In this document: piece after piece, positions 12,502 to 37,311 of the stretch
How positions within the stretch are numbered: the first letter of the stretch is position 1
How the letters are laid out: every line of letters starts with the position of its first letter
Program-made: the position numbers and the translations under genes
Assembly: GCF_900129295.1 (NCBI RefSeq)
Contig: NZ_FQUU01000002.1
Span: 353,988-417,987, forward strand
DNA from: Flavisolibacter ginsengisoli DSM 18119
GTDB taxonomy: Bacteria > Bacteroidota > Bacteroidia > Chitinophagales > Chitinophagaceae
Direction of reading: 5' to 3'
Length of the DNA: 64,000 nt
Notes under the pieces: model-generated
Database searches by the model: none
The model's input: the letters and a program-made list of their open reading frames with translations, nothing else
What the model was told of the DNA's origin: nothing

Positions 12502-12521
12502 TTGATTGTTTGACAATCAAA
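12501..12521. promoter_or_regulatory. Perfect inverted repeat over the mlaE transcription start
   Basis: TTTGATTGT / ACAATCAAA, 9-bp arms with a 3-base centre. It overlaps the predicted -7 element and start site (about 12513) and touches the ATG, so it is more likely a protein-binding operator than an RNA hairpin. Confidence 0.5.
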
Positions 12522-12582
12522 TATTGGACATTTTAATCTGTTTTTAAATGAAACTCGTCAAGGGAAATAATGATATAAATCA
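12518..12582 (-). promoter_or_regulatory. Tandem CRP/FNR-type operator and promoter of the mla operon
   Basis: Two exact TGA-N6-TCA sites, TGAAACTCGTCA (12549-12560) and TGATATAAATCA (12571-12582), are offset by 22 bp. On the minus strand AATATTTG (12518-12525) matches the Bacteroidota -7 element TAnnTTTG in five of six fixed bases and is centred exactly 33 bp from the proximal site. Confidence 0.75.
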
Positions 12583-12593
12583 CCAAAGAAAAA

Positions 12594-13001
12594 TTATAAA
12601 AGGATCTCTCTTTCTATCCATAAATTATTACGATAATTTAAAACGCTTTTTTTGCCTATTTCATTTAGTTCATCAAGAGATAGCTCATCCGTACCAGCTG
12701 TTTCAACCCATGAATAGCCATTCCGGCGATATATTTGTGTAAACAACCCAAATTGCTCTTTCATTTGCTCTTCAACCTCCCCGGCTTTCATCCATCTGTT
12801 AAAATGAATCATATTTTGAGTATGCTTTTTTGTTTCAATTGCAGATATCTTAAATTCGGATGAATAACGATGCGCTTTCCTGGTTGTTTCCCCCCAGTTA
12901 TGCGGCATGTCAAAAAACTCAATCTTTAAATATGGATATTCTTTGCTAAAAGGCGATTGGATATCCTTAATACAGGATATTTTCTTGATTTCGAGTGTCA
13001 T
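12594..13001 (-). CDS. Conserved hypothetical protein, family A (paralogue at 35194-35535)
   Basis: 135 residues, no family I can name. The N-terminal 31 residues align without gaps to the paralogue at 35194-35535 (shared 'YPYLKIEFFD' / 'FPFLKIEFYD'), and the central 'EQFGLFTQIYRRNGYSWVET' matches 'NNFGLVARIYHYIGNRWVVL'. It has no signal peptide or membrane segment and is probably a small alpha/beta cytoplasmic protein. Its ATG overlaps the stop of the small membrane protein gene upstream (ATGA), so the two are translationally coupled. Both paralogues lie in the stress island, one directly behind Usp genes. Confidence 0.85.
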   Translation of the reverse strand: MTLEIKKISCIKDIQSPFSKEYPYLKIEFFDMPHNWGETTRKAHRYSSEFKISAIETKKHTQNMIHFNRWMKAGEVEEQMKEQFGLFTQIYRRNGYSWVETAGTDELSLDELNEIGKKSVLNYRNNLWIEREILL

Positions 13002-13165
13002 AATATTGGGTTTTCCTGAATGAATAATCTATATAATTGATCGAGTACAAAAACTATAATATCTTTTATATATCTAAACCCAAAAGCTATTAGCAAAACT
13101 GAGATCATCAGAAATGCCAATTGCCTGTAATCTGTATCAATAATATACGGCGCGGGGGTAAACAT
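12998..13165 (-). CDS. Small single-pass membrane protein (55 residues)
   Basis: An ATG at 13165 opens a 55-codon frame whose TGA overlaps the ATG of the next gene by the ATGA arrangement. The product starts MFTPAPYIIDTDYRQ and has one hydrophobic helix (about residues 16-33, 'LAFLMISVLLIAFGFRYI') followed by an amphipathic tail. The frame fills the gap between the family A gene and the operator pair at 13215-13248. A TAATTTG promoter-like element at 13185-13191 lies about 32.5 bp from the centre of the near operator. I do not recognise a family. It is below the usual length cut-off for gene calling. Confidence 0.65.
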   Translation of the reverse strand: MFTPAPYIIDTDYRQLAFLMISVLLIAFGFRYIKDIIVFVLDQLYRLFIQENPIL

Positions 13166-13184
13166 AAAGGTTAAGGGTTTATAG

Positions 13185-13279
13185 CAAATTAAGTAAGACC
13201 TAAAACACTTTCAATGAGCGCTGTCACCAAAACCAATGATGGCTGTCACCTATGATAGCTTAGCTATAAAATAAATTTG
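13185..13279. promoter_or_regulatory. Divergent CRP/FNR-type operator pair (small membrane protein / phospholipase D)
   Basis: TGAGCGCTGTCA (13215-13226) and TGATGGCTGTCA (13237-13248) are offset by 22 bp. To the right, TAAATTTG (13272-13279) is a perfect -7 element exactly 33 bp from the right-hand site and serves the gene at 13301. To the left, TAATTTG on the minus strand (13185-13191) has nearly the same spacing from the left-hand site and serves the gene at 13165. Confidence 0.82.
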
Positions 13280-13300
13280 GTATAAAAGGGTTACTTCCAA

Positions 13301-15405: not shown

Positions 15406-15505
15406 AGCTCTTTTGCCCAGCTTTTTCTCAAGCAGGGCCTCGCCTATACATGCGCCCAGTACGATATGTGTGATGGAATCTATAAAATAAAAATGAGGTT
15501 TACCA

Positions 15506-16165
15506 CTACATTGCTTTAGCTCCGCCAGTGGATTGTTTGATCAATAAATTATTAGTAACTAAAGACTTAACAATTAGTTTTCCATATTCATGCGCTAATT
15601 CCTCTCTTGAAGAAGGTTCGAAAGATTGGGTTTGAATAGAATATAGCAGCTTATTTTTATTCAGATCATAAAGGTTGCTTTCCCAAAAATAGTTTGAATA
15701 ACTACTATAATAACCAGGAGTTTCTATTCTCTCATAAATTGTTCTGTAATATCCCCAAAAACGGGTATGGTATGTAAAGTAAGGTGTGTATATCACCCTG
15801 CCCGGTACGTAATACCTTTCCTGTTTCTTATCTAATAAAACAATAGTAAGCACTCCATCAAAACCACTCGATTTAAGTTTTTGGTTTGCCTGTTCTTCGG
15901 TTAAATTTTCAAAAGCCTTAGGACCATATTCTTCAAGAGCTGAATAGGCATTATAACCTAATTCTTTAAGATCCCCTACCAAGTGATTTTCCATATTCTG
16001 TTGAATGCTTCTATCTGCATCCCGAATCAATCCCAGCACCATTACCTTATCAAATGTGCGCGGTGCCGCATCGGGCGCTTTCCAAGTACTGGTTATTGCA
16101 GTGGTGGTTCCGCATGAAATAAATAACCACCCCGAAATCATAAGAAACACAATAATATTTTTCAT
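15506..16165 (-). CDS. Lipoprotein, DUF4136-like
   Basis: 219 residues with a type II signal peptide (MKNIIVFLMISGWLFISCG). The mature part starts 'TSTWKAPD' and contains 'FDKVMVLGLIRDADRS' and a Tyr-rich central part, resembling small periplasmic or outer-membrane lipoproteins of the DUF4136 type; function unknown. It has a single exact operator at 16214-16225 upstream and is followed by the YdjM-like gene. Confidence 0.82.
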   Translation of the reverse strand: MKNIIVFLMISGWLFISCGTTTAITSTWKAPDAAPRTFDKVMVLGLIRDADRSIQQNMENHLVGDLKELGYNAYSALEEYGPKAFENLTEEQANQKLKSSGFDGVLTIVLLDKKQERYYVPGRVIYTPYFTYHTRFWGYYRTIYERIETPGYYSSYSNYFWESNLYDLNKNKLLYSIQTQSFEPSSREELAHEYGKLIVKSLVTNNLLIKQSTGGAKAM

Positions 16166-16183
16166 ACCCTTTTAAACCTGTAA

Positions 16184-16225
16184 CAAATTATTAAATAGAA
16201 AAATGCCTATCAATGATGGCTGTCA
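16184..16225 (-). promoter_or_regulatory. CRP/FNR-type operator and promoter of the lipoprotein gene
   Basis: TGATGGCTGTCA (16214-16225) is identical to the site at 13237-13248. TAATTTG on the minus strand (16184-16190) is a -7-like element with one spacer base missing, centred 32.5 bp away, the same layout as at 13185-13226. Confidence 0.65.
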
Positions 16226-16292
16226 GTTAATAGCAGAATTGATATCATTTTACCATTGATAACAGCTTTAATCTAGGAATCATTATAAAATC

Positions 16293-16335
16293 TGACGACC
16301 ATCAGCACTTAGAAAAAGCGTTTAGGTTACCTTAA
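16293..16335 (+). promoter_or_regulatory. CRP/FNR-type operator and promoter of the P-type ATPase gene
   Basis: TGACGACCATCA (16293-16304) is centred exactly 33 bp from TACCTTAA (16328-16335), which matches TAnnTTTG in four of six fixed bases. The predicted transcript starts near 16340, 9 bases before the TTG start codon. Confidence 0.65.
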
Positions 16336-16348
16336 CAAAAACTAATAC

Positions 16349-18859
16349 TTGAATAGTGTCTCTTTTAATGGAATATTTACAGGTTTAACGCAAAAGGAAA
16401 TTCCGGAACTTCAAAAGAAATATGGAAAGAACGCTTTTCAGTCAGGAGAGTCAGGCAATTTACTTCGCTTAACATGGGGAATTATTTCAGAACCCATGTT
16501 CATCATTTTATTGGTGGCCTGCGCCCTTTATTTCATTCTTGGCGAATCCAGGGAAGGCTTCCTTATGCTGGCAGCAATGATATTTGTTTCTGCTATTTCT
16601 TTTTACCAGGAAACGAAAAGTTCCAATGCTTTAGCCGCACTCAGGGAATTTACTGAACCAAAGGTTATGGTGATACGCGAGGGAAAGGAAACTGAGATCT
16701 TTTCCATTGATTTGTTACCAGGTGATATAATGTATCTATCCGAGGGGAGTCGTATTCCTGCGGATGCCATTATTATGCAGGCAAATGATTTTACCATCAA
16801 TGAATCTATTATAACGGGAGAATCACTTCCTGTAAATAAATCTTCAAATACAAAAGACACTAAACTATTCCAGGGAACAACCATCAATTCCGGATGGTGC
16901 TATGCCAGGGTCACAGCAATTGGCAATGATACCACTTTGGGCAAATTGGGCAAATCAATTACAACTATAAATACATCCAAAACCCTATTACAAAAGCAGG
17001 TAAGCACTTTTGTAAAAAGAATGGCAACATTTAGTATGATGGCATTCCTGCTTATATGGTTTATCAACTACCGCCAAACGGGTAGCCTGGCAGAGAGCCT
17101 ATTAGTTGGACTTGTATTAGCTATGTCTGTTATTCCTGAAGAGATTCCTGTGGCTTTCTCTTCCTTTATGGCATTGGGTGCTTTCCATATGGCTAAACTT
17201 GGCATCATTACCAGGCAGCCAGCAACTATTGAAAACCTGGGGGCGGTTAGTGTTATCTGCCTGGATAAAACCGGTACCATAACACAAAATAAAATGGCGG
17301 TAAAATTAATTTACGACTATAAAAGCGATAAACTACTGGACGTTCAACAGCTAACAAAAAATGAAACACCTGTTTTGCACTTTGCCAGGTTGGCAAGTGA
17401 ACAAATGCCTTTTGATGCCATGGAAAAAGCAATTATTGATGCATACCAGGAATCTAATGATGGCGATGCAGATAGTGTTTTTTCAATTTCACACGAATAT
17501 CCATTGGAAGGCTACCCTCCCATGATGACACATGTACACGGCCATGCTGATATAAAAACGGTGGCGGGGAAAGGTGCCCCCGAAAGAATAATCAAAGTGT
17601 GCAGGCTCGATGAAAACAGTATCGCTAAAATCCGTAAAATAGTTATCGACATGGCTTGCCAGGGATACAGGGTTTTAGGAGTATGCTCCGCCCTATCAGC
17701 CAATAACGATTTCCCTCAAAGCCAGGATGATTTTAACTGGCAATTTGAAGGCCTCCTGGCTCTTTATGATCCACCCAAAACCCAGGTACACGCTGAACTC
17801 AAAAAATGGTACAAGGCAGGAATCAAGATTAAGCTAATTACTGGTGACTATGCTGAAACCGCAATAAATATTTCAGAACAAGTTGGATTAAGGGAATTTA
17901 AAAAAAATAAAACAGGTGAAGAAATACAGCATTACTCGGAAGTTGAAATAAAAGAGGTAGCAGCATCAACAAACCTTTTTTCACGGATGTTTCCAGATGC
18001 CAAATTAAAGATCATAGAAGCTTTAAAAGCAAATGGTGAAATTGTAGCAATGATGGGAGATGGGGTAAATGATGCGCCAGCTTTAAAATCGTCGCATATT
18101 GGCATAGCGGGAGGAAGTAAGGGTGCAGACATTGCCAGGGAAGCATCTGATCTTATTCTTACAGATGACAATCTTGATAAGATTACCGAAGCTATCTACC
18201 AGGGTAGAAAGATCTTTAATAATTTAAAGAAAGCAGTCAGGTATATTATTTCCATTCATACCCCGATAATCCTGACAGCAGCCTTGCCTGTAATTTTAGG
18301 ATGGAAATTTCCTAACATCTTTACTCCAATTCATGTAATATTTCTTGAGATCATTATGGGCCCCACCTGCTCTATCTTTTATGAAAGAGAACCAGCCGAT
18401 AAGGATATAATGACCTTACCTCCCCGGGAAAGATCACAAACCATGTTTACCTGGAATGAATTGCTTGTAAGCTTAATACAGGGAGCGATCATTGCAATAG
18501 GTGTCCTTTCTATATACTATTACTTTATGAACCTGGGATATGAAATTAATTACGTCAGGACTATTGTATTTATCACGTTGATCTTCAGTAATATATTTTT
18601 GACCTTTGTAAACAGGTCCTTTAGAGAAACAATAAACAATACCTTAAAATATAAAAACAATCTTGCCCCATGGATACTTATTATTTCAGTAATATTTCTA
18701 TGGAGTATATTATCCATCCCATTTATAAAGGATGTTTTTTATTTAAGCAAAATTTCAACACAACATTTTATACTTGCTATGGTAGTTGGCTTTACAACTA
18801 CTGCCTGGTTTGAATTATACAAATTAATTAAGAAAAAAAAGAAGGCTCCTAGCATATAA
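16349..18859 (+). CDS. Cation-transporting P-type ATPase (P2-like)
   Basis: 836 residues beginning at a TTG; no nearer ATG keeps the N-terminal cytoplasmic part. It has the actuator TGES, the phosphorylation motif 'DKTGTITQN', hinge 'MMGDGVNDAPALKSSHIGI', and eight to ten membrane helices. The core helix-4 motif is 'SVIPEEIPVAF', different from the PEGL or PEAL of classic Ca2+ pumps, and helix 6 carries 'IIMGPTCSIFYERE'. The ion is therefore uncertain (Ca2+, Mg2+ or other). It is distinct from the second pump at 29232-31802. The operator 45 bp upstream places it in the island regulon. Confidence 0.9.
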   Translation: MNSVSFNGIFTGLTQKEIPELQKKYGKNAFQSGESGNLLRLTWGIISEPMFIILLVACALYFILGESREGFLMLAAMIFVSAISFYQETKSSNALAALREFTEPKVMVIREGKETEIFSIDLLPGDIMYLSEGSRIPADAIIMQANDFTINESIITGESLPVNKSSNTKDTKLFQGTTINSGWCYARVTAIGNDTTLGKLGKSITTINTSKTLLQKQVSTFVKRMATFSMMAFLLIWFINYRQTGSLAESLLVGLVLAMSVIPEEIPVAFSSFMALGAFHMAKLGIITRQPATIENLGAVSVICLDKTGTITQNKMAVKLIYDYKSDKLLDVQQLTKNETPVLHFARLASEQMPFDAMEKAIIDAYQESNDGDADSVFSISHEYPLEGYPPMMTHVHGHADIKTVAGKGAPERIIKVCRLDENSIAKIRKIVIDMACQGYRVLGVCSALSANNDFPQSQDDFNWQFEGLLALYDPPKTQVHAELKKWYKAGIKIKLITGDYAETAINISEQVGLREFKKNKTGEEIQHYSEVEIKEVAASTNLFSRMFPDAKLKIIEALKANGEIVAMMGDGVNDAPALKSSHIGIAGGSKGADIAREASDLILTDDNLDKITEAIYQGRKIFNNLKKAVRYIISIHTPIILTAALPVILGWKFPNIFTPIHVIFLEIIMGPTCSIFYEREPADKDIMTLPPRERSQTMFTWNELLVSLIQGAIIAIGVLSIYYYFMNLGYEINYVRTIVFITLIFSNIFLTFVNRSFRETINNTLKYKNNLAPWILIISVIFLWSILSIPFIKDVFYLSKISTQHFILAMVVGFTTTAWFELYKLIKKKKKAPSI

Positions 18860-18876
18860 CATTGGGTATATCCTTA

Positions 18877-19314
18877 TTAGTATACCACTATCCTTCCTGA
18901 CCTGTTTCTGAATCCGCCTTTTAGTTTTGGGAAATATATTTTAAGCAGCCCGTCCTCGTAAACAGATTTAATAAAATCGGTATCAATATCTTCTGGCAAT
19001 GGAATTCTTCCCATTAAAGATTTAAAATCGTAGTTCTTTACCTCGGAAAATAATGCCTGGGGATTCACTGGTTGCATGACAAAAATAATAAGGTCATGCT
19101 CGTTAATGAAAATGGCAAAGTCTTCTCTTTTCAATCCAGGCATTCCCATTTCCACCTTGATATGATCTGCAAACTCATAGGTATTGATCAAAGGAGCAGG
19201 ACCCTTATTAATACCTTTATTGGTTAGCAGATCCTGTATATTATACGGAGGGGGGTTGTATTTACCTGGGTATAATGTCGTGGCATCATTGTCCTTGGTG
19301 TAGTAGTTATTCAT
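18877..19314 (-). CDS. Divergent Hsp20/alpha-crystallin small heat-shock protein
   Basis: 145 residues with an alpha-crystallin domain (about 45-140): 'HIKVEMGMPGLKREDFAIFI', 'GRIPLPEDIDTDFIKSVYEDGLLKIYFPK'. The N-terminal arm is longer and Tyr/Pro/Asn-rich, and the protein differs strongly from the canonical Hsp20 at 28653-29096. Small heat-shock proteins hold unfolding proteins in a refoldable state without ATP. It has a long predicted leader of about 107 nt. Confidence 0.88.
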   Translation of the reverse strand: MNNYYTKDNDATTLYPGKYNPPPYNIQDLLTNKGINKGPAPLINTYEFADHIKVEMGMPGLKREDFAIFINEHDLIIFVMQPVNPQALFSEVKNYDFKSLMGRIPLPEDIDTDFIKSVYEDGLLKIYFPKLKGGFRNRSGRIVVY

Positions 19315-19425
19315 AAACGATTACTTCAATTTATAAAATGAACCAATTTTAAGCAGGTAGTTCGGGAAGGGTGTTTTTATAGCACGGAAGGGTGGAGATG
19401 TACCGGGGAAGCATCTGCTACATAG

Positions 19426-19468
19426 CTAAGCTAAGGACATAAATACCTCCAAACCATGACGGAAATCA
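19426..19468 (-). promoter_or_regulatory. CRP/FNR-type operator and promoter of the divergent hsp20
   Basis: TGACGGAAATCA (19457-19468) is centred exactly 33 bp from TAGCTTAG on the minus strand (19426-19433), a five-of-six match to TAnnTTTG. Transcription should start near 19421. Confidence 0.65.
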
Positions 19469-19698
19469 TTATTTAAAAATCATTATTGGCCCGTATTTAA
19501 AAGTAGAATAAAACCACAGGCATTATACTATCCATTTACCAATAAGTTAATTCCTGGCAAACATATTCGTTTTTAAAATAATGAATTGAAGAACCCAAAT
19601 TATATCTTCCTTTATGCCATCATTTTCCTTTCATATTTAAATGCTTTTCTGACCAGGTTATCACAAGTCTGTGCCGCCTTTATACCACCTCTTTAAAG

Positions 19699-19753
19699 AG
19701 CCGTTACAAAGCCGTTACATAGGCGGCACATAGGGGGTACATAGCCGTTGCAT
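19699..19753. repeat. Tandem repeat, five copies of an 11-bp unit
   Basis: Copies are agccgttacaa, agccgttacat, aggcggcacat, agggggtacat and agccgttgcat, head to tail without gaps. The period of 11 is not a multiple of 3 and the sequence is not in a gene. It is G+C-richer than its surroundings. Confidence 0.8.
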
Positions 19754-19894: not shown

Positions 19895-20464
19895 TCAATT
19901 ACTGCTGCGGGGCTTCATTTCCGCCTTTATCTCCTCCATTAATCCCACCTGTACATTTTGGATTTCAAACATAGTCTTCATTTGCTCTGCTATCAACAGA
20001 TCTAGCTTTTGGTGTAGATTTCGAACTTCTATCTCGGATTTTAAATTGACCAGGTAATCGTTAATGGCTCTCCGTCGATCCTTCTCTTCCTTGCGATTTT
20101 GGCTCATCATTATTATGGGCGCTTGTAGAGCAGCTATTGTAGAAAGAATGAGATTAAGTAAAATAAAGGGATAGGGATCAAAAGGCTTTCTTATCATATA
20201 AAGATTTAGAATGATCCAGAGCAGCATCAAAACCAAAAAGAACAGGATGAATAACCAGCTTCCACCAAATGAGGCAATTTTATCAGCAAGCCTTTTATCA
20301 AAGCCAGGATTCTTATCTTCAAATTCGTAAAGTTTTTCAGATATTAGTTTTTCTTCTTCAATAGATTTAATAACAATTTCATTAAGCTTCTGCAACTGTT
20401 GATTTTCAGTTTCTAAAAGCTCCTGCAATTCTTTACTTCTTTCCAATTTTGTATTTCTATTCAT
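19895..20464 (-). CDS. DUF1003 membrane protein
   Basis: 189 residues. An N-terminal coiled-coil segment (to about 60) is followed by the DUF1003 core: 'ADKIASFGGSWLFILFF', a second helix, and 'FDPYPFILLNLILSTIAALQAP' then 'MMSQNRKEEKDR'. Two membrane helices and a long cytoplasmic helical tail are predicted. The function of the family is unknown. Its start overlaps the stop of the upstream Usp gene by 4 bases (ATGA-type), so the two are coupled. Confidence 0.9.
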   Translation of the reverse strand: MNRNTKLERSKELQELLETENQQLQKLNEIVIKSIEEEKLISEKLYEFEDKNPGFDKRLADKIASFGGSWLFILFFLVLMLLWIILNLYMIRKPFDPYPFILLNLILSTIAALQAPIIMMSQNRKEEKDRRRAINDYLVNLKSEIEVRNLHQKLDLLIAEQMKTMFEIQNVQVGLMEEIKAEMKPRSSN

Positions 20465-21279
20465 TTATGTGCAATGAAAACCGGCAACTTCAGGGATTGA
20501 ATAATATCTGATGCAAAGCTTTTATGAAACATTTGAGATAGTGCTGAACGCCCAAATGCACCAAAAACAGCCAGGGCACCTTTCTTTTCACTTATCCAAT
20601 CATCAAAGAATTTCCTGTGTGCAACTTTAAGTTTAAAGAACTCAATGTTTGGAAAATGCTGGTTTACCAATTCTTCCATATTTTCCTTATCGGGCATGAG
20701 TTCATCGCCTGAATTTGAATAAACAAGCAATGAAGGTGCTGATGTTAACTCGGGAAACAAGTAAGCAAACTGCTTAATAGCATATACCGCAGACTCAGTT
20801 CCATCATAAGTTAATAAAGTGCTTTGAGGGAAATCATAATGTTCAGGTACAATCAATATTGGACACTCCGCCATTTTCAAAGTTTCACGCATGTAATCAT
20901 TCATTTCTATACCCATATTATTATAAAACACTTCTCCCCCTAACAGCAACAAATCCGCAAAACGTGTTTCTTTCCTAAGCTCTGCCATAGCGAACCCATA
21001 AAAGTTTTTATGAACACGAAACTTTATATTATTTAGCTGACATAATTCTTCAAAATGCCTTATATTTTTTTGAACCAATGTAGTATCTTCATCTTCCACC
21101 AAGGGTATTACCATACCCCCGGCCACGCCCACTGAGTAACTCCATAAATTGGCATAATCCACCTGAGGCATAAAAGCTGCAGTTACTAAAACCGGTTGCA
21201 ATTCATTAATTCGCATTACGAATTCAAATGCACCTTCTGAAAAGTTGGTACCATCAAAAGCAAGCAAGATCTTTTTCAT
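20461..21279 (-). CDS. Double-domain universal stress protein
   Basis: 272 residues with two fused UspA-like domains. Domain 1 begins 'KKILLAFDGTNFSEGAFEF'; domain 2 holds 'TLLTYDGTESAVYAIKQF' and ends in 'VFGAFGRSALSQMFHKSFA', the glycine-rich nucleotide-binding region in degenerate form. Usp proteins support survival in growth arrest. It is most similar in the window to the Usp at 23305-24126 (both share 'RINELQPVL' and 'NLWSY'). First gene of a two-gene operon with the DUF1003 gene. Confidence 0.93.
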   Translation of the reverse strand: MKKILLAFDGTNFSEGAFEFVMRINELQPVLVTAAFMPQVDYANLWSYSVGVAGGMVIPLVEDEDTTLVQKNIRHFEELCQLNNIKFRVHKNFYGFAMAELRKETRFADLLLLGGEVFYNNMGIEMNDYMRETLKMAECPILIVPEHYDFPQSTLLTYDGTESAVYAIKQFAYLFPELTSAPSLLVYSNSGDELMPDKENMEELVNQHFPNIEFFKLKVAHRKFFDDWISEKKGALAVFGAFGRSALSQMFHKSFASDIIQSLKLPVFIAHK

Positions 21280-21296: not shown

Positions 21297-21361
21297 CAAA
21301 CTATGACTAAATTCTACCAGGAACAATGACCAAATAACACTTGCTTCACTGATTATTATCA
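21297..21361 (-). promoter_or_regulatory. CRP/FNR-type operator of the usp-DUF1003 operon
   Basis: TGATTATTATCA (21350-21361) is exact. A degenerate left-half match, TGACCAAATAAC (21327-21338), lies 23 bp nearer the gene, and TAGTTTG on the minus strand (21297-21303) is a -7-like element at the right distance from it. The distal site is firm; the proximal one is weak. Confidence 0.5.
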
Positions 21362-21393: not shown

Positions 21394-21458
21394 TGACAGC
21401 AATTACGATTCGCTGTGATGGTCGTCATTGAAACACTCATACTGTCTTAATATGTTTG
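21394..21458 (+). promoter_or_regulatory. Tandem CRP/FNR-type operator and promoter of the baeRF gene
   Basis: TGACAGCAATTA (21394-21405, one mismatch) and TGATGGTCGTCA (21416-21427, exact) are offset by 22 bp. TATGTTTG (21451-21458) is a perfect TAnnTTTG -7 element exactly 33 bp from the exact site. Transcription should start near 21463, which sets the start codon of the gene at 21482. Confidence 0.8.
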
Positions 21459-24320: not shown

Positions 24321-24354
24321 TGACTGTTATTGACTTGTTTTATGATGGTTATCA
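24321..24354. promoter_or_regulatory. Second operator pair upstream of usp, target unclear
   Basis: TGACTGTTATTG (24321-24332, degenerate) and TGATGGTTATCA (24343-24354, exact) are offset by 22 bp. Reading right, TACTTTTA (24376-24383) is a -7-like element, but no gene follows before the convergent DUF892 gene; reading left, the usp start is 195 bp away. It may drive a second usp promoter or an untranslated RNA. Confidence 0.5.
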
Positions 24355-24982: not shown

Positions 24983-25078
24983 TAAACTTAATACTGTTAA
25001 TGCTTGCTGCCAATGACAGGCATCATTCTTTTCTTTGATGACGCTCATTGATATACTTCACATTATTGGTTTGCTTTG
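24983..25078. promoter_or_regulatory. Divergent CRP/FNR-type operator pair (DUF892 / YbhB-like)
   Basis: TGACAGGCATCA (25014-25025) and TGATGACGCTCA (25036-25047) are offset by 22 bp. TAAGTTTA on the minus strand (24983-24990) lies exactly 33 bp from the left site and serves DUF892; TTGCTTTG (25071-25078) lies exactly 33 bp from the right site and serves the gene at 25139. Each -7 element matches five of six fixed bases. Confidence 0.82.
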
Positions 25079-25823: not shown

Positions 25824-25857
25824 TGAGTAAACTCAAATTAAAAATTGATGTTTATCA
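25824..25857 (+). promoter_or_regulatory. Tandem CRP/FNR-type operator upstream of the receiver-CRP regulator
   Basis: TGAGTAAACTCA (25824-25835) and TGATGTTTATCA (25846-25857), both exact, are offset by 22 bp. No good -7 element lies at 33 bp (CACCTTGC at 25881-25888). TAAATTTT (25933-25940) is a better candidate and would place the near site about 93 bp upstream of the start, a class I distance. The rest of the 345-bp gap shows nothing else. Confidence 0.65.
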
Positions 25858-25978: not shown

Positions 25979-27037
25979 ATGAAAAAGATCCTGGTCGTTG
26001 AGGATAATTTAGACATCCGTGATAATACGGCAGAGATCCTGGAAATGGCTAATTACAGGGTATTTACGGCAGAGAATGGATTGAAAGGGGTTGAATCTGC
26101 AATAGCTAACAAACCCGACCTGATTGTCTGTGACATTATGATGCCTGAATTGGATGGGTATGGGGTATTGCATGTAATTCAGCACAATCCTGAATTAAAG
26201 AGTACACCATTTATATTTTTATCAGCCAAAACAGAACCCGCGGAAGTTAGGAAAGGAATGGGCTTGGGTGCTGATGACTATATTCCAAAGCCATTTACCG
26301 CCACAGACCTTTTAAATGCAATAGAAAGCAGGCTTAAAAAAGTAGAAGTTTTAAAATCTACCATATCATCAGATATTCATGGGTTCAACCACTTGATGAG
26401 CATTACCTCGGGGAAAGAAGCCTTACAACAATTTATTGATGGCCGCAATACCAATAGATATAAAAAGAAACAGATTATATTTTCTGAGGGAAACAAGCCT
26501 ACCCGACTATATTATATCCAAAAAGGTAAGGTCAAGATCATTAAATCCAATGATGAGGGTAAAGAACTGGTTGTAAACTTATTTAACGAAGGTGATTTTT
26601 TTGGGTATACAGCTTTACTCGAAGGAACATCCTACAAAGCTTCGGCTGTTGCAATTGAAGAGTGCGAAATAGCTGAAATTCCAAAAGAGGAATTTGAAGA
26701 GTTAATGAATACTAACCCGGAGGTAACTCATAAATTTATTCAACTGCTGGCAAAGAATATAACTGAAAAAGAAAAGCAGCTATTGAACCTGGCCTATAAT
26801 TCCCTGCGAAAAAAAGTTGCAGATGCATTGATCACCCTTATGGAAAAATATAACCGAAAACTAAACGATCATTATACAATAGATATCAGCCGCGAAAACC
26901 TTGCTACAATTGCTGGTACAGCTACAGAATCTCTTATACGTACATTAAGTGATTTTAAAACCGAAAAATTACTTGAGATAATGGAAGGGCATATAATAAT
27001 ACTGAATGAGAATAAACTTCGAAAGATGATCAATTAA
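25979..27037 (+). CDS. Response regulator fused to a CRP/FNR-type transcription factor
   Basis: 352 residues. A receiver domain (about 1-122) has the acidic pocket 'VVEDN', phospho-acceptor Asp in 'LIVCDIMMPELDG' and Lys in 'IPKPF'. A cyclic-nucleotide-binding-type beta barrel follows (about 150-240, 'IFSEGNKPTRLYYIQKGKVKI'), then a Crp-type winged helix (about 270-345). The recognition helix 'AGTATESLIRTL' keeps the Glu and Arg that in CRP and FNR contact the GA of TGA half-sites. No Cys cluster like that of FNR is present, so it does not sense oxygen by itself. It is the natural candidate to bind the island's operators. No histidine kinase lies beside it. Confidence 0.92.
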   Translation: MKKILVVEDNLDIRDNTAEILEMANYRVFTAENGLKGVESAIANKPDLIVCDIMMPELDGYGVLHVIQHNPELKSTPFIFLSAKTEPAEVRKGMGLGADDYIPKPFTATDLLNAIESRLKKVEVLKSTISSDIHGFNHLMSITSGKEALQQFIDGRNTNRYKKKQIIFSEGNKPTRLYYIQKGKVKIIKSNDEGKELVVNLFNEGDFFGYTALLEGTSYKASAVAIEECEIAEIPKEEFEELMNTNPEVTHKFIQLLAKNITEKEKQLLNLAYNSLRKKVADALITLMEKYNRKLNDHYTIDISRENLATIAGTATESLIRTLSDFKTEKLLEIMEGHIIILNENKLRKMIN

Positions 27038-27426
27038 TTGTAATAACCAACGACACTTTCAGCCAGGAATTCATTAAATTCCTTTTTTAGATTGAATAGA
27101 ACTTCTTCAGCTTTCTCAACATCTTTTTTTAATTTCTGGTGGTTCCTGATGACTAATTCAAGTATCTGAGTATCTGTGGCAATATTTTGACTCAGGAATT
27201 TTATGTGTTGATGTATCTCATCCACAAGCCAGTGTATTGTTTCATCACTCATTATAAAATTTCCCTGGAAGTATTCAGACCTTTCTAACAATTCTTCATT
27301 GACAGCATCATTTAATATCTCAGATAAACGATTGCGGTAATAAACATTTTCTTCCCTAAAGAAATACAATATTCTTTTCCAGGATTCACATTCAAAATTA
27401 AACTGTCTGATAAATGTGGCAGGCAT
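27034..27426 (-). CDS. Hypothetical helical protein
   Basis: 130 residues from the ATG at 27426 (MPATFIRQFNF); the longer TTG frame (27459) would overlap the protease gene. The protein is almost wholly helical, with a coiled-coil C-terminal half ('NHQKLKKDVEKAEEVLFNLKKE'-type heptads, about 95-125). No family recognised. It begins 16 bp after the protease gene and is likely co-transcribed with it. Its 3' end overlaps the regulator gene's stop by 4 bases, tail to tail. Confidence 0.75.
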   Translation of the reverse strand: MPATFIRQFNFECESWKRILYFFREENVYYRNRLSEILNDAVNEELLERSEYFQGNFIMSDETIHWLVDEIHQHIKFLSQNIATDTQILELVIRNHQKLKKDVEKAEEVLFNLKKEFNEFLAESVVGYYN

Positions 27427-27442
27427 ACGAATCGTTTCAATT

Positions 27443-28564
27443 TCACACCAATTCAGCAAGGGACCGTGCTTTCTGGTACTCCCGGGTCTTTGATTTTTGC
27501 AAAATCAGATGTTCAATGATGTTTTGAAAACTTATAACACCTATGAAATGGTCTCCTTCCATTACAGGGTATATCTTACCCTCATGGGCTGAAAGTTCAT
27601 CCATCACCTCTAAAACAGGTTTGGAAGCATCATAGAATAGCGTATTTTCTTTCATTACCTCACTTACAGTAGTGTCATATTTCATTTCTGCAACTGCCTT
27701 TATGATCTCCATACGATTTACTATTCCAACAGGCCAATTGTCATCCATTACAATGAAATAGCGGCTGTGATTTTGCGCAAGTAAATTAGCGGCTTCATTA
27801 ATCGTAGTACTGACATTCATATTATTGTAGTCATACATTACCACATCCCGTACAAATATGCCTTTTACTAATTCATTTATATTAAAATAAGATGCCTCGT
27901 CTGATGCAAATGCAAGAATATAAAGCCCTAACAGGGAGACAAAAAAGTTGTAGCTAAACAGCCCTGTTATTATAAGCAGAAATGCTACAATGCGGCCAGT
28001 ATGACCAACTATGGCAGTAGCCCTTATATAGTTGTACTTAAACCCGAGCAAGGCCCTGAAAACTCTTCCACCATCAAGAGGAAACGCTGGTATGAGATTA
28101 ATGACGGCAATGGCAATATTGAGTACGCCAAGGCTGTAAATAAAATTAGATGAGTCAATAATACCAGTATATGCCCTCATATCATTTAATGAAAAGGGTA
28201 GCCCGGAAAACAAAACAAGGGTTGATCCTATTAAAGTACTAACAAATACTCCGGCTAAACTGATTGGCAATTCCTGGCCCGGATTATCTGGTAATTTATC
28301 AATGCTTGCTATTCCGCCTACAGGATAGAAAGTGATCCATCTTGCATTAATGCCAAACTGGGCACCTACCAATGCATGTCCAACTTCATGCAAGACCAGG
28401 CTGAAAAAAATTGCAATAAAGAAAAGCAATGACCAAAGCATTTGACCAGGGTGAAGGCCGGAATAGATGTTCATAACAATCAACCACCCAATTAATAACA
28501 GAAAAGTAAAGTGAACAGAGATCACAACACTTTTAATGGAACATAACCTGATGGAGCCTTTCAT
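27443..28564 (-). CDS. M50 site-2 protease with two CBS domains (Rip3-like)
   Basis: The start is set at the ATG at 28564 (MKGSIRLCSIKSVVISVHFTF, 373 residues), since the longer frame runs through a terminator hairpin. Six or so membrane helices carry the zinc motif 'LHEVGHALV' (HExxH) and the second ligand in 'IPAFPLDGGRVF'. The C-terminal third holds two CBS domains. Such proteases cut membrane-bound regulators, and the CBS pair may gate activity through adenine nucleotides. M. tuberculosis Rip3 (Rv2625c) in the DosR regulon has the same build. Confidence 0.92.
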   Translation of the reverse strand: MKGSIRLCSIKSVVISVHFTFLLLIGWLIVMNIYSGLHPGQMLWSLLFFIAIFFSLVLHEVGHALVGAQFGINARWITFYPVGGIASIDKLPDNPGQELPISLAGVFVSTLIGSTLVLFSGLPFSLNDMRAYTGIIDSSNFIYSLGVLNIAIAVINLIPAFPLDGGRVFRALLGFKYNYIRATAIVGHTGRIVAFLLIITGLFSYNFFVSLLGLYILAFASDEASYFNINELVKGIFVRDVVMYDYNNMNVSTTINEAANLLAQNHSRYFIVMDDNWPVGIVNRMEIIKAVAEMKYDTTVSEVMKENTLFYDASKPVLEVMDELSAHEGKIYPVMEGDHFIGVISFQNIIEHLILQKSKTREYQKARSLAELV

Positions 28565-28652: not shown

Positions 28653-29096
28653 CTAATGAACAGCAATTTGTTTTGTTGCTGTTAATTTCTTTGAATTCTC
28701 TTTCCTTGGTAATGCAAGGATCAAAACTCCGTTTTCATATTTAGCATCAATGGCTTCCTGTTTTACATCCTCAGGAAGAGTAAAACTGCGTGAAAAAGAA
28801 GTGTAGTTATATTCCTTGCGTGTTACCATTTCATCCTTTTCTTCTTTCTTTTCTTCTTTCTCTGAGCTTATAGTTAGCATATTGCCTTCTACATTGATCT
28901 TGAAATCTTCTTTCTTTAATCCTGGAGCTGCCAATGACATTTCATAATGATCTTTTTTTTCAGTTATGTTAACTGCTGGAAGAGTCATCATTTTATTGGC
29001 AAATTCGTTATTATCAAACCATTCATTCCATGGTCTGAAGAAGTCATCAAAAATGGATGGTGTCATGCTCAATCTGGTTAAGGCTCTGCTTGACAT
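28653..29096 (-). CDS. Hsp20/alpha-crystallin small heat-shock protein
   Basis: 147 residues with a canonical alpha-crystallin domain (about 40-145): 'DHYEMSLAAPGLKKEDFKINV', 'YNYTSFSRSFTLPEDV', 'AKYENGVLILALPRKE'. N-terminal arm with 'PSIFDDFFRPWNEWF' as in Bacteroidota IbpA-like proteins. It has its own strong promoter with a tandem operator. Compare HspX (Acr) in the DosR regulon. Confidence 0.95.
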   Translation of the reverse strand: MSSRALTRLSMTPSIFDDFFRPWNEWFDNNEFANKMMTLPAVNITEKKDHYEMSLAAPGLKKEDFKINVEGNMLTISSEKEEKKEEKDEMVTRKEYNYTSFSRSFTLPEDVKQEAIDAKYENGVLILALPRKENSKKLTATKQIAVH

Positions 29097-29135: not shown

Positions 29136-29200
29136 CAAATCTATGCTTGCAGCATGCGCTATTCAAAGACGGTGGTCAGCATTTCTTATGAGTGTGGTCA
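29136..29200 (-). promoter_or_regulatory. Tandem CRP/FNR-type operator and promoter of hsp20
   Basis: AGACGGTGGTCA (29167-29178, one mismatch) and TGAGTGTGGTCA (29189-29200, exact) are offset by 22 bp. TAGATTTG on the minus strand (29136-29143) is a perfect -7 element centred exactly 33 bp from the near site. Confidence 0.8.
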
Positions 29201-29231
29201 GTAATTATTTTGGTTCATAATAAATTGGAAA

Positions 29232-31802: not shown

Positions 31803-31857
31803 CTTATGGCCTTGTAGCTTATGGGAATAAAAGCTATTATTAGCATCAGGCAATACA

Positions 31858-32688: not shown

Positions 32689-32708
32689 ATATCATGAAAA
32701 TTAGCCTG

Positions 32709-35090: not shown

Positions 35091-35193
35091 TTGATTAACA
35101 TTTATAGAGCATTAAATCTTCTTTAGGATAGTCCTGGCATCAAAAAAACATCTTACCTCTTCATCATGAAAATAGATTTACAAACTTTGTACA

Positions 35194-35535
35194 TTATATG
35201 GGCTTTAGTTTTGGCGATAGGGTTTCTCCACCAGTTAAAACCACCCACCTATTTCCAATGTAATGGTAAATCCGGGCAACCAACCCAAAGTTGTTCCAAA
35301 GGTCCTCTTCCACTGTTTCTACTCTATACCATGATTTAATAGTACAAATCCCCGGATCATGTTTCTTTCTGATAGTTTCAACACGCACATTGGGGGCAAG
35401 AGGGAATAGTAGGTGATAATCCTTTATTGACCTATACCGTCGGTCATAAAATTCAATTTTCAAAAAGGGGAAGCTTTCATTGAAATTTTCCTGTAGATCT
35501 CCTATTGTTTTATTATCATCAATTTCTAAAAGCAC
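35194..35535 (-). CDS. Conserved hypothetical protein, family A (paralogue of 12594-13001)
   Basis: The GTG at 35535 is chosen: from it the first 31 residues align without gaps to the paralogue, and it leaves a 7-bp gap to the Usp gene instead of an overlap (TTG at 35559). 113 residues, cytoplasmic, with 'FPFLKIEFYD' and 'NFGLVARIYHYIGNRWVVL'. Function unknown. The family's place behind Usp genes here, and in an operator-controlled unit at 12.6-13.2 kb, suggests a stress role. Confidence 0.82.
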   Translation of the reverse strand: MLLEIDDNKTIGDLQENFNESFPFLKIEFYDRRYRSIKDYHLLFPLAPNVRVETIRKKHDPGICTIKSWYRVETVEEDLWNNFGLVARIYHYIGNRWVVLTGGETLSPKLKPI

Positions 35536-35542
35536 ATCATTG

Positions 35543-36382
35543 TTATTTATTGTGAGCAATAAATAGTGGCAACTTCAAATGGTTTAGTAAAACATCTGCC
35601 ATACTTTGCCTGAATAATCTTGACATCCGGCTTCTTCGATAAGCTCCAAGTACTACTAGAGATTCTTTTTTTTGATGGGCCAGGTAACTGACTATTTTAT
35701 CTTCAATAAATCCCTTTATGACCACATAGGTTGCTTTGGGGTAATGCCTTTTCATAAATTCCTTCATCAATTTGTTCTCTGGCAGATGAAGGGATTCATC
35801 CTCCCCCTTGGCACAGAGAAATTCAATATCAAAATTTTTAAATCCAGGCATCAAATAACTAAACATTTTTACTGCATGAACTGACGAGGGTTCTCCATCG
35901 TATAAGAAAACAATGTTTTCTACCGGTTTATAACTTGATGGCACTACAAGAACAGGACACTGAACATCCGTAAGCAGGTCCCGTATAAAACGTGTTGGTG
36001 GAATTTCTTCAAACCTTGTCATAGTTTCTTTACTATCGACAATGAGCAAGTCGGCATAAATTGATTCATGCAGCAGTTCTTGTAAAGCCACATTTTTATC
36101 CCTGTGTATTGAATAATTCACCCCAGCCTGTTGACAGTCCCTTACAAAGTTTTCGGCTGCCTGGTTTCTTGCGTCTTTATCTTTCTGATTTAATTCCTCA
36201 AGGTGATCATCAAAGGAACCCGCATATTTTGTTAATTCAGCCACACTGTAACTATGCCTGGTTACATCATCCAGTAGTATACCAACCAGGTGTGCTTCCA
36301 TATGCTTAGCCATAAAAATGGAATAGTCTTTAGTACTTTCAGAGAAACTTAATCCATCAAAAGCTGCAATAATTTTTTTCAT
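35543..36382 (-). CDS. Double-domain universal stress protein
   Basis: 279 residues with two UspA folds: 'KKIIAAFDGLSFSESTKDYSIF'-type domain 1 and domain 2 ending 'VVLGAYRRSRMSRLFRQSMA', where the usual Gly-Arg-Ser loop reads 'YRRSRMS', so nucleotide binding may be altered. It starts 9 bp after the next Usp gene and forms an operon with it and with the family A gene. More like the Usp at 36392 than those at 20-24 kb. Confidence 0.92.
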   Translation of the reverse strand: MKKIIAAFDGLSFSESTKDYSIFMAKHMEAHLVGILLDDVTRHSYSVAELTKYAGSFDDHLEELNQKDKDARNQAAENFVRDCQQAGVNYSIHRDKNVALQELLHESIYADLLIVDSKETMTRFEEIPPTRFIRDLLTDVQCPVLVVPSSYKPVENIVFLYDGEPSSVHAVKMFSYLMPGFKNFDIEFLCAKGEDESLHLPENKLMKEFMKRHYPKATYVVIKGFIEDKIVSYLAHQKKESLVVLGAYRRSRMSRLFRQSMADVLLNHLKLPLFIAHNK

Positions 36383-36391
36383 AACATATGT

Positions 36392-37231
36392 TTATATATG
36401 TGTAATAAATAGTGGCAGATCTACCATGCGAAATAGTAGTTCTGCAGCGCTTTTTTTAAACAAATTAGAAAGCATACTTCGCCCATAAGCACCCATAACT
36501 ATCAACATACCTGTTTTATTGAAAAAGTATTTAAATAACTCTTCCTCAGGATTTCCTTTCAAATCTTTTGAATGAACAGAAGAAAAATGACAACGCAGCA
36601 GATCTATTAGTTTCTTTTTAGAGTCATTGTATTCCACTGCCTTTTTATGGTCCACTTCTAATAACGTAACCTTTTTGTTGTTATAAAATGAAAACAGGTA
36701 AGTGAATTGCTTAATAGCAAAGACAGCTGATGCGCTACCATCGTAACAAAAGACTACTTCCTTAATTTCTTCAAACCTGCCAGGGGTTAGTAAAACAGGA
36801 CATTCTGCATGAAGAAGCACTTCCCTGGTGAAATGTGAGGGAAGATCTTCCTCCTTATTCTGAAAGCTAAGGGCCGGGTCAATTATAAGAAGATCTGAAA
36901 ACCGACTTTCAAAGATTATTTCCTGGATAGGTTCACCTTTATCCTGGTATAGCTCATAACTCACACCATTCTTTTCGCACTGCTCTTTGAATATGCGAAT
37001 GCATAAGTCAATATCTGTTATTATCCCTCCTTTAATAAGGGTACTTTCTGAAATTGTTGCAGCAGAAACCTCGTATACGGGTTCATCAGATGAAGGGATG
37101 TATTCGAAATATACATTTTCAACAAACACACCGGTAAGTTTCGAACCTGCATCCTTTGCAATATCACTCGCAAACCGGATAACTTGTACATCTGGCTTGT
37201 GAGCATTAATGACAAGTAAAATCTTTTCCAT
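36392..37231 (-). CDS. Double-domain universal stress protein
   Basis: 279 residues; domain 1 begins 'EKILLVINAHKPDVQVIRF' and domain 2 ends 'IVMGAYGRSMLSNLFKKSAAE', which keeps the GxxGRS-type nucleotide loop. First gene of the operon usp-usp-family A, perhaps extending through ppsA, CHAD and the Ca-type ATPase (all minus strand, no strong terminator seen between). The promoter with a tandem operator is at 37246-37311. Confidence 0.93.
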   Translation of the reverse strand: MEKILLVINAHKPDVQVIRFASDIAKDAGSKLTGVFVENVYFEYIPSSDEPVYEVSAATISESTLIKGGIITDIDLCIRIFKEQCEKNGVSYELYQDKGEPIQEIIFESRFSDLLIIDPALSFQNKEEDLPSHFTREVLLHAECPVLLTPGRFEEIKEVVFCYDGSASAVFAIKQFTYLFSFYNNKKVTLLEVDHKKAVEYNDSKKKLIDLLRCHFSSVHSKDLKGNPEEELFKYFFNKTGMLIVMGAYGRSMLSNLFKKSAAELLFRMVDLPLFITHI

Positions 37232-37245
37232 AAAACCGCTTTAAC

Positions 37246-37311
37246 CAAATCTAATCTTCCAACCCTATTCATTCATATGACCATCATTACACGCTTTTGT
37301 GACAGCCGTCA
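37246..37311 (-). promoter_or_regulatory. Tandem CRP/FNR-type operator and promoter of the usp-usp operon
   Basis: TGACCATCATTA (37278-37289, one mismatch) and TGACAGCCGTCA (37300-37311, exact) are offset by 22 bp. TAGATTTG on the minus strand (37246-37253) is a perfect -7 element, identical to that of hsp20 at 29136, centred 34 bp from the near site. The rest of the 337-bp gap holds only the mnmA promoter. Confidence 0.78.

What the first reader, a model, noticed from the sequence alone, without database searches (positions are those of the whole stretch)
12518..37311. A CRP/FNR-type regulon marked by TGA-N6-TCA operators in nearly every promoter of the stress island
Sixteen exact TGA-N6-TCA sites (consensus TGAY-N4-RTCA; Y at position 4 in 12, R at position 9 in 14) lie in about 3 kb of intergenic DNA at 12549, 12571, 13215, 13237, 16214, 16293, 19457, 21350, 21416, 24343, 25014, 25036, 25824, 25846, 29189 and 37300. 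My rough estimate of chance is one per 3 kb. They stand before mla, phospholipase D, the small membrane protein, two P-type ATPase or Hsp20 units, Usp, baeRF, DUF892, PEBP and the regulator itself.
Basis: partly seen in the sequence, partly recalled or inferred. Interest (0 to 1): 0.95.

Follow-up and report, generated by a model that had tools for sequence, protein, structure and literature searches.

The report
Twin-site low-oxygen switch in Bacteroidota
The repeated TGA-N6-TCA words in this bacterium are parts of a precisely built promoter (two palindromes 22 bp apart, set at a fixed distance from the RNA polymerase element) that a fused two-component/CRP-type protein likely uses to turn on respiration, denitrification and stress genes, predicted to happen when oxygen runs low, in this family and likely in much of its class.

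Summary
In detail: all 16 sites are present and intergenic; the island's 2,807 intergenic bp hold 18 such words against 0.87 expected. The usual unit is a pair of TGA-N6-TCA palindromes exactly 22 bp apart: 14 of 35 close pairs genome-wide, and 763 exact tandems against 19 reversed controls in 146 relatives. Aligning 46 operators oriented by their only neighbouring gene exposed the Bacteroidota -7 element TAnnTTTG at one fixed offset, putting the palindromes at -41.5 and -63.5: activator geometry. Around 80 named relatives of the island's receiver-CRP fusion gene, 245 such promoters (up to 3 mismatches) stand against 2 controls, before cbb3 oxidase, nos, Rrf2, Ric, hemN, Hsp20, Usp-like genes and the regulator itself. 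In 52 of 80 a kinase with a FixL-like PAS is directly upstream. Best reading: a FixL-FixJ-FixK-type oxygen cascade collapsed into kinase plus one fused regulator. Binding, oxygen response and the window copy's kinase are inferred; REC-less CRPs also sit near such sites.

The parts
12549..12582 (-). tandem operator (two exact palindromes, 22 bp apart) before mlaE; -7-like AATATTTG (5/6) in register at 12518-12525
13215..13248 (+). tandem operator before the PLD-domain gene; perfect TAAATTTG at 13272-13279; on the - strand 5/6 TTAATTTG one base off register (towards the 135-aa gene's side, but that gene starts 213 bp away)
16214..16225 (-). single palindrome before the lipoprotein gene 15506-16165; weak -7 (4/6, TAATTTGT) in -41.5 register
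16293..16304 (+). single palindrome before the P-type ATPase gene 16349-18859; weak -7 (4/6, TACCTTAA) in -41.5 register
19457..19468 (-). single palindrome before Hsp20 gene 18877-19314; -7 TAGCTTAG (5/6) in -41.5 register
21350..21361 (-). single palindrome upstream of usp-like gene 20461-21279; no good -7 in register
21394..21427 (+). tandem operator (distal palindrome 5/6) before baeRF gene; perfect TATGTTTG at 21451-21458, so the mechanical TTG start at 21428 is probably too early
24343..24354 (-). palindrome with 4/6 partner at 24321, 217 bp upstream of usp-like gene 23305-24126; weakest of the set
25014..25047 (.). tandem operator shared by divergent genes: -7 TTGCTTTG (5/6) towards PEBP (+) and TAAGTTTA (5/6) towards DUF892 (-)
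25824..25857 (+). tandem operator (both exact) before the REC-CRP gene itself; -7 poor (3/6 in register, 4/6 one base off)
29167..29200 (-). tandem operator (one palindrome 5/6) before the hsp20, M50/CBS, 141-aa run; perfect TAGATTTG at 29136-29143
37278..37311 (-). tandem operator (one palindrome 5/6) before the usp-usp-121aa-ppsA-CHAD-ATPase run; perfect TAGATTTG with 24-bp instead of 23-bp spacing at 37246-37253
25979..27037 (+). REC-CRP fusion: receiver (4-116), cNMP-binding fold (160-246), Crp-type HTH (279-350); D9, D52, K104 and helix ATESLIR kept, CRP cAMP ligands not kept, no FNR cysteine set; no kinase gene directly beside it in the window
12594..13001 (-). 135-aa protein of a family without Pfam match (relative at 35194-35559) found near REC-CRP in relatives; 11 of 23 homologues have an operator-promoter
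27034..27459 (-). 141-aa protein of a family without Pfam match, convergent with REC-CRP; 12 of 16 non-duplicate homologues have an operator-promoter
28653..29096 (-). Hsp20 target; 13 of 24 non-duplicate homologues have an operator-promoter

Best explanation
The TGA-N6-TCA words are halves of a fixed operator-promoter, TGA-N6-TCA-N10-TGA-N6-TCA-N23-TAnnTTTG, which the island's receiver-CRP fusion protein (REC-CRP) likely binds as two side-by-side dimers, predicted to be centred at -41.5 and -63.5, and would thereby activate microaerobic-respiration, denitrification and stress genes. SHOWN by sequence: the operator, its 22-bp period, its register to the -7 element, its concentration around REC-CRP genes and the kinds of genes behind it. 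INFERRED: that REC-CRP is the main binder (its recognition helix keeps the E and R that read GA in CRP/FNR proteins); that the proximal dimer stands in for the missing -33 element and contacts RNA polymerase as a class II activator while the distal dimer adds contacts or cooperativity; that activity is set by phosphorylation of D52; and that the signal is low oxygen, sensed in most relatives by the FixL-like PAS histidine kinase, predicted to bind haem, that is encoded directly upstream. In this genome the second REC-CRP copy (contig C45) has that kinase; the window's copy has none beside it and would have to be phosphorylated by that or another kinase. It thus would work like the rhizobial FixL-FixJ-FixK cascade with FixJ's receiver and FixK's DNA-binding part in one protein, removing one transcription step.
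For: Spacing: 14 of 35 close pairs in the genome at exactly 22 bp, control 7 pairs over all 31 gaps; 90 pairs at 22 bp and at most 5 at any other spacing up to 80 in 80 named REC-CRP loci (all 90 distinct). Relatives: 763 exact tandems against 19 reversed controls in 146 genomes, against a mean of 84 at each of the 30 other gaps. Register: 22 of 46 and 87 of 174 oriented operators have at least 5/6 of TAnnTTTG at offset 57, at most 8 at any other offset from 40 to 79; TAnnTTTG is reported at -12 to -5 of measured starts in Flavobacterium (PMC9723704, passages). Regulator: genomes with a full-length REC-CRP 1.46 tandems/Mb, others 0.40 (Mann-Whitney p 2e-10, relatedness not corrected); 65 per Mb in the 80 named loci. 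Residues. Regulon. Kinase: adjacent in 52 of 80 (51 of 77 after dropping near-duplicate loci); FixL's haem-His column is His in 52 of 52, its Arg column Arg in 37 and Lys in 7; best PDB matches of the PAS are FixL, then DosP haem domains. F. psychrophilum is reported to induce cbb3 oxidase and haem genes under oxygen limitation (PMC9723704).
Against: No binding, expression or oxygen data for any protein here. 40 of 146 genomes lacked a REC-CRP match at E below 1e-90 (some are incomplete; in one the match is cut by a contig end) yet hold 54 tandems against 3 controls. Tandems also lie near REC-less CRP genes: 13 exact in 9 of 40 loci, 18 per Mb, some with helix VGTATE-S/T-x-IR beside genes that look like ccoI, ccoN or ric, some in the promoter of a C14-type CRP, some beside Cys-rich CRPs. 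3 of 106 REC-CRP+ genomes have no exact tandem, and 6 of 20 neighbourhoods have none. 28 of 80 loci have no adjacent kinase by my criterion, the window's copy included in spirit: it has none; the FixL Arg column is neither Arg nor Lys in 8 of 52. The window's REC-CRP promoter has a poor -7. In family f5 the tandem is hardly enriched (8 in 46.8 Mb); there a single -41.5 site is the rule. Operators of PLD, DUF892, PEBP, ppsA and CHAD were not found conserved (0 of 1 to 0 of 2 homologues each) and mlaE had no homologue in these loci.
Confidence: 0.72

Rival explanations
1. The operator-promoter is real but its main binder is a REC-less CRP/FNR protein (the VGTATE-S/T-x-IR type, the C14 type or a Cys-rich FNR-like type); REC-CRP is a co-regulator or a target.
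For: REC-less CRPs with a near-identical recognition helix lie beside genes that look like ccoI, ccoN and ric with tandems; 54 tandems in 40 genomes without a full-length REC-CRP match; the own genome has four further CRP-type proteins, one with a 2-mismatch operator-promoter beside its gene.
Against: Tandem density near REC-CRP (57 per Mb in 20 neighbourhoods, 65 in the 80 named loci) is about three times that near 40 REC-less CRPs, and 0 exact tandems lie in 76 kb around the four own REC-less CRP genes; density across genomes follows REC-CRP. Shared use by both kinds is quite possible.
Confidence: 0.17
2. The regulator is REC-CRP but the signal is not oxygen: nitric oxide, redox state of the quinone pool, or general starvation acts through another kinase.
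For: Targets include Rrf2, Ric-type and nos genes; the window copy has no adjacent kinase; haem-PAS domains can bind NO (general knowledge).
Against: The PAS is closest to FixL and DosP oxygen sensors with His in 52 of 52 and Arg in 37 of 52; cbb3 oxidase and hemN are typical low-oxygen targets (FixK regulon in PMC4999443, passages).
Confidence: 0.2
3. REC-CRP bound at these operators represses (or does both) rather than activates.
For: At the REC-CRP gene itself the -7 is poor and the palindromes lie 127 and 149 bp from the start codon, so autoregulation could be negative, as reported for fixK2 (start of the abstract of PMC9104804 in the listing).
Against: The fixed -41.5/-63.5 register and the absence of a visible -33 element at the aligned promoters are typical of activator-dependent promoters; a repressor would not need one register in many genomes.
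Confidence: 0.06
4. The words are chance or a by-product of AT-rich composition or of repeats.
For: TGA and TCA are common in AT-rich intergenic DNA; gaps other than 10 bp also exceed the reversed control (84 per gap on average over 30 gaps in 146 genomes).
Against: 18 against 0.87 expected; 763 against 19; one register to an independent promoter element.
Confidence: 0.01

Closest known systems
FixL-FixJ-FixK oxygen cascade of rhizobia and Caulobacterales (PMC4999443, PMC5582078: passages seen)
   Same: FixL-like PAS kinase; receiver-type regulator; CRP-family activator with TTGA-N6-TCAA-like sites; FixK site reported 40.5 bp from a nosR start; reported targets cco, hemN, fixLJ and fixK itself
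   Different: Receiver and CRP-type DNA-binding part are one protein, so no separate fixK transcription step; operator usually two palindromes 22 bp apart; outer T of TTGA not conserved (T 15% before the distal TGA); no FixJ-type LuxR HTH (FixJ's HTH type recalled)
FNR / ANR / FnrN
   Same: FNR-like half-site, E and R in the recognition helix, respiration targets, -41.5 position (partly recalled)
   Different: No FNR-type cysteine set (only C51 conserved, in the receiver); receiver domain instead of Fe-S cluster as predicted input
E. coli CRP class II and class III promoters (recalled)
   Same: Dimer at -41.5, second dimer upstream
   Different: Second dimer at a constant 22 bp throughout a regulon and in many genera; CRP's cAMP ligands E72, R82, S83 not kept (CRP numbering recalled)
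DosR dormancy regulon of Mycobacterium (recalled, not tested)
   Same: Haem-sensor kinase plus response regulator controlling Usp, Hsp20, P-type ATPase and flavin-type oxidase genes
   Different: DosR has a LuxR-type HTH; different operator; unrelated regulator family
PDB 2gau, a Crp/Fnr-family regulator (best solved relative)
   Same: CRP-type domain, E 2e-25 over residues 161-349
   Different: Chain of 232 residues; the match covers only the CRP part of REC-CRP; its function is not described in the listing

Membership tests
CRP/FNR superfamily | cNMP-binding fold plus Crp-type HTH | tested here: met
   PF00027 2.5e-26 and PF13545 1.5e-12
CRP/FNR superfamily | recognition helix with E and, four residues on, R for TGA half-sites (positions recalled from CRP and FNR) | tested here: met
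   E317 and R321 at 95% or more in 82 REC-CRPs; E-S/T-x-x-R in 21 of 21 of a wider set including the query
Two-component response regulator | receiver with phospho-acceptor Asp and catalytic residues | tested here: met
   PF00072 1.4e-26; D9, D52, K104 in 21 of 21
cAMP-dependent CRP | cAMP-contact residues (E72, R82, S83 of CRP, recalled) | tested here: not met
   Equivalent loop reads GYTALLEGTSYKASAVA, aligned by eye to recalled CRP numbering
FNR | N-terminal and central cysteines for a 4Fe-4S cluster | tested here: not met
   C51 is the only Cys column in more than 10% of 82 sequences
FixL-FixJ-FixK cascade | FixL-like haem-PAS histidine kinase encoded with the receiver | tested here: met
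   52 of 80 named loci and own C45 copy; His 52 of 52. Haem binding itself untested. Not met beside the window copy
FixL-FixJ-FixK cascade | separate FixJ activating a separate fixK gene | tested here: not met
   Receiver and CRP parts are one ORF
FixL-FixJ-FixK cascade | oxygen-dependent kinase activity | not testable with these tools
   needs biochemistry
Class II activator promoter | site centred near -41.5 with a -10/-7 element in register | tested here: met
   offset 57 peak; f5 single sites at offset 35; -12 to -5 numbering from PMC9723704
Class II activator promoter | measured transcription start and activation | not testable with these tools
   no transcriptome held

The most novel reading that the evidence does not exclude
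A large part of the class around this genome runs its low-oxygen programme with a one-step cascade: a haem-PAS kinase phosphorylates a FixJ-FixK fusion that binds twin palindromes at -41.5 and -63.5, and because the twin operator is itself two-fold symmetric, one copy can drive two divergent promoters with the near and far sites swapping roles (27 of 87 two-sided operators have a -7 element within 1 bp of register on both strands).
Probability: 0.6. Interest if true: 0.86.

Novelty: new variant of a known kind. Interest (0 to 1): 0.8.

Why it matters
Ten full-text searches of the held open-licence library listed no paper that, by title or abstract start, describes how Bacteroidota control cbb3 oxidase, nos genes or Usp/Hsp20 islands (searches matched 205 and 759 papers of which 20 and 25 were listed, and most subscription papers are not held). 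These bacteria are abundant in soil, sludge and freshwater (general knowledge) and several loci seen here carry nos genes. If right, one 65-bp pattern predicts low-oxygen and N-oxide promoters, with exact start sites, in many genera, and gives a directly testable regulator, kinase and promoter set. It would also be a natural shortening of a textbook three-protein cascade.

Tried and rejected
Single-word scan of the genome (TGAY-N4-RTCA, 359 against 240 control): too weak to define the regulon; replaced by the tandem and then the full operator-promoter. Fe-S sensing by REC-CRP: rejected, no cysteine set. cAMP sensing: not supported. Chance and repeat origin: rejected. Strict one-to-one link between REC-CRP and tandem: rejected, REC-less CRPs share it. 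Universality of the tandem: rejected for family f5, where a single -41.5 site is used. REC-CRP beyond the class: 32 of 198 phylum genomes have a match at E 1e-50 or better, none of them among the 149 outside the class. A structure of the 135-aa protein (pLDDT 88.8) gave 0 PDB matches at E 0.001 or less among 87 at E 10 or less, so no function. Samples: of the REC-CRP and REC-less CRP genes listed I took 20 of 34 and 40 of the REC-less ones, best-scoring first, so one search is not a random sample; one REC-less gene 2 kb from another was not taken separately.

Full report
1. What was claimed and whether it is there. All 16 are there, at the stated places, outside the genes of my models. With those models the stretch has 2,807 intergenic bp; it holds 18 such words against 0.87 expected (2,000 first-order Markov simulations, largest 5) and the reversed word occurs once. 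Counts of Y4 (12) and R9 (14) are right.

2. A hidden rule: pairs 22 bp apart. Four of the island's pairs are exactly 22 bp apart, and three further sites have a 5-of-6 partner at the same distance. Over the whole genome, 35 pairs of exact words lie within 0-30 bp of one another; 14 of 35 have the one gap of 10 bp (22-bp period), while the reversed control gives 7 pairs over all 31 gaps. In 146 genomes of the family the exact tandem occurs 763 times against 19 reversed controls in 620 Mb; all 31 gaps together give 3,288, so the other 30 gaps average 84 each, well above the reversed control because single words are also enriched. In 80 named loci around relatives of the island's regulator (1.375 Mb), 90 pairs have spacing 22 and no other spacing up to 80 has more than 5. 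The 90 are distinct sequences although three pairs of loci share DNA.

3. A promoter element appears by itself. I took 141 distinct exact tandems from the loci then in hand and oriented each by the gene beside it; 46 had a gene on one side only, 87 on both, 8 on neither. The 46 were aligned on the operator alone. A second motif emerged at positions 57-64: T61% A78% n n T83% T85% T63% G52%, that is TAnnTTTG, the -7 element of the Bacteroidota sigma factor. At least 5 of 6 letters match at offset 57 in 22 of 46 one-sided and 87 of 174 two-sided orientations, and in at most 8 at any other offset between 40 and 79. Of the 87 two-sided operators, 27 have it (within 1 bp) on both strands, 48 on one and 12 on neither, so one symmetric operator may serve two divergent promoters; 25014-25047 between DUF892 and PEBP is an example in the window. 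A start-site map of Flavobacterium psychrophilum places TAnnTTTG at -12 to -5 (PMC9723704, passages seen). With that numbering the proximal palindrome is centred at -41.5 and the distal one at -63.5; no -33 element is visible in the alignment.

4. How many such promoters. In the own genome the full pattern with up to 3 mismatches occurs 53 times against 4 reversed controls. In the 80 named loci (up to 3 mismatches at 23-bp spacing, up to 2 at 22 or 24): 245 against 2, 244 of them distinct sequences; 235 have an ORF behind them, 230 distinct genes. Clustering the 230 gives heavy-metal P-type ATPase (CcoI-type by eye) 27, fused CcoN-CcoO 26, Rrf2 21, a cytochrome c of the nos region 20, Ric/ScdA-type 15, Hsp20 12, Usp-like 12, REC-CRP itself 11, 141-aa type 11, HemN 10, 135-aa type 8, YgaP-like 6, hemerythrin-like 4, an NnrS-like protein (by eye) 3, nosZ-type 3, and smaller clusters, 27 of the 49 clusters being single genes. 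Names were checked on one representative for most of these clusters; the ATPase, Ric and Usp-like representatives fell below NCBIfam's specific cut-offs, and the hemerythrin-like name rests on likeness to the window's PF01814 protein. In the own genome outside the island, operator-promoters or exact tandems lie beside a nos-type cytochrome, the Rrf2-ric-kinase-REC-CRP run beside a nirK-like gene, P-type ATPases, an SQR-like gene (tandem only), efflux genes, a 2Fe-2S thioredoxin-like subunit (PF01257), hypA-like and azurin-like genes and unknowns (most named by eye).

5. Conservation. Of 1,670 ORFs in 95 non-duplicate REC-CRP loci of relatives, 250 have an operator-promoter, control 0. Best-hit homologues of island genes: 70 of 210; other ORFs, which include cco, nos and ric genes, 180 of 1,460 (odds ratio 3.6, p 5e-13). 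Best kept: the 141-aa protein 12 of 16, hsp20_28653 13 of 24, the 135-aa protein 11 of 23, hemerythrin 4 of 7; REC-CRP itself 14 of 93. Not seen kept: PLD 0 of 1, DUF892 0 of 1, PEBP 0 of 2, ppsA 0 of 2, CHAD 0 of 1, DUF1003 0 of 2, the 121-aa protein 0 of 3; no mlaE homologue in these loci.

6. The regulator. 25979-27037 encodes a receiver, a cNMP-binding fold and a Crp-type HTH. In 82 sequences (80 named, the query and the own C45 copy) D9, D52, K104 and E317 and R321 of the recognition helix are at 95% or more; CRP's cAMP ligands are not kept, and the only common cysteine is C51. In 20 loci from other families of the class the triad and E-S/T-x-x-R are kept in 21 of 21 sequences including the query. 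A database search scored 7,998 relatives; the best 120 listed all carry the same three Pfam domains and, where named, generic names. Tandem density is 1.46 per Mb in 106 genomes with a full-length REC-CRP match and 0.40 in 40 without (p 2e-10; relatedness not corrected). It is 57 per Mb in 20 REC-CRP neighbourhoods and 65 in the 80 named loci (the two sets overlap in two loci), and 18 per Mb near 40 REC-less CRP genes of the same genomes. Nine of those 40 have tandems: some are REC-less CRPs with helix VGTATE-S/T-x-IR beside genes that look like ccoI, ccoN or ric, or with the operator before their own gene; some are C14-type CRPs with the operator in their own or a sister gene's promoter; two are Cys-rich CRPs. 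So the operator is shared property of a small set of CRP proteins in which REC-CRP is the one most densely surrounded by it.

7. The kinase. In 52 of 80 loci a histidine kinase on the same strand ends within -40 to +80 bp of the REC-CRP start (51 of 77 loci with at least 1.3 kb upstream; 51 of 77 without near-duplicates); the own second copy on contig C45 has one ending 2 bp before REC-CRP, downstream of nirK-side Rrf2 and ric. The PAS of that kinase matches FixL haem domains best (3e-19), then other FixL entries and E. coli DosP. The FixL haem-His column holds His in 52 of 52 kinases; the Arg column Arg in 37, Lys in 7, other in 8. A stricter motif was found in 36 of 52. The window's REC-CRP has no kinase directly beside it.

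8. Range. Exact tandems per Mb: 1.24 in 21 REC-CRP+ genomes outside family f5, 0.17 in 11 of f5, 0.18 in 17 class genomes without it, 0.15 in 149 outside the class. In f5 the loci show a single palindrome with TAnnTTTG at the -41.5 register: 15 exact against at most 3 at other offsets, 54 against a median of 3 with 5 of 6 letters. In the 80 named loci single sites show this only weakly (31 against a median of 10) and partnered sites strongly (103 against 2). So the -41.5 site is the common core and the -63.5 site looks like a lineage-specific addition.

9. Mechanism. Inferred: low oxygen activates the haem-PAS kinase; REC-CRP is phosphorylated at D52, binds as dimers to the two palindromes and recruits RNA polymerase to promoters that lack a -33 element. 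What it works like: FixL-FixJ-FixK, whose FixK sites are TTGA-N6-TCAA, whose reported targets include cco, hemN, fixLJ and fixK (PMC4999443, passages) and nosR with a site 40.5 bp from a start (PMC5582078, passages). It is not a member of that cascade in the strict sense, because separate FixJ and FixK proteins are a defining feature that is not met. F. psychrophilum is reported to raise cbb3 oxidase and haem biosynthesis under oxygen limitation, and the main text held names neither Crp nor Fnr (PMC9723704).

10. Limits. No experiment; gene models are mechanical ORFs; several names are by eye; family-wide statistics are not corrected for relatedness; which CRP protein occupies which operator is open; the autoregulatory site in the window has a poor -7. 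The library searched for earlier reports is open-licence only and long result lists were capped (PMC8510549, a CRP/FNR meta-regulon study, passages, treats MalR-like homologues in Bacteroidota-type MAGs and no receiver-CRP fusion in the passages seen).

Noticed in passing
12594-13001 (-) and 35194-35559 (-): Two related members of a small protein family without Pfam match that sits near REC-CRP in relatives; confident predicted fold (pLDDT 88.8, two strand-helix-strand halves plus a C-terminal helix) without a PDB match at E 0.001.
   Followed up: partly
27034-27459 (-): Second small family without Pfam match, convergent with REC-CRP, with an operator-promoter in 12 of 16 non-duplicate homologues.
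   Followed up: partly
L206 (G000:C21 near 223008): A 131-aa receiver-like protein resembling the REC part of REC-CRP lies behind a 2-mismatch operator-promoter: possible phosphate sink or feedback element (by eye).
   Followed up: no
L023 1521-1907 and 2553-3893: A truncated-haemoglobin-like protein and an NnrS-like membrane protein lie beside the nirK-like, Rrf2, ric, kinase, REC-CRP run of the own genome (named by eye).
   Followed up: no
L216, L218, L219, L222, L223, L226: REC-less CRP proteins with helix VGTATE-S/T-x-IR, three of them beside genes that look like ccoI, ccoN or ric: a likely sister regulator of the same regulon in genomes with or without REC-CRP.
   Followed up: partly
L163: One REC-CRP locus comes from a MAG titled Bacteriovoracaceae, outside the Bacteroidota; possibly a misassigned bin, possibly transfer.
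   Followed up: no
51892-59436 (-): A 2,514-aa histidine kinase with repeated GAF-like segments and C-terminal receivers, next to a lone receiver (51482-51862) and a cyclase-like protein (49784-51463); named by eye.
   Followed up: no
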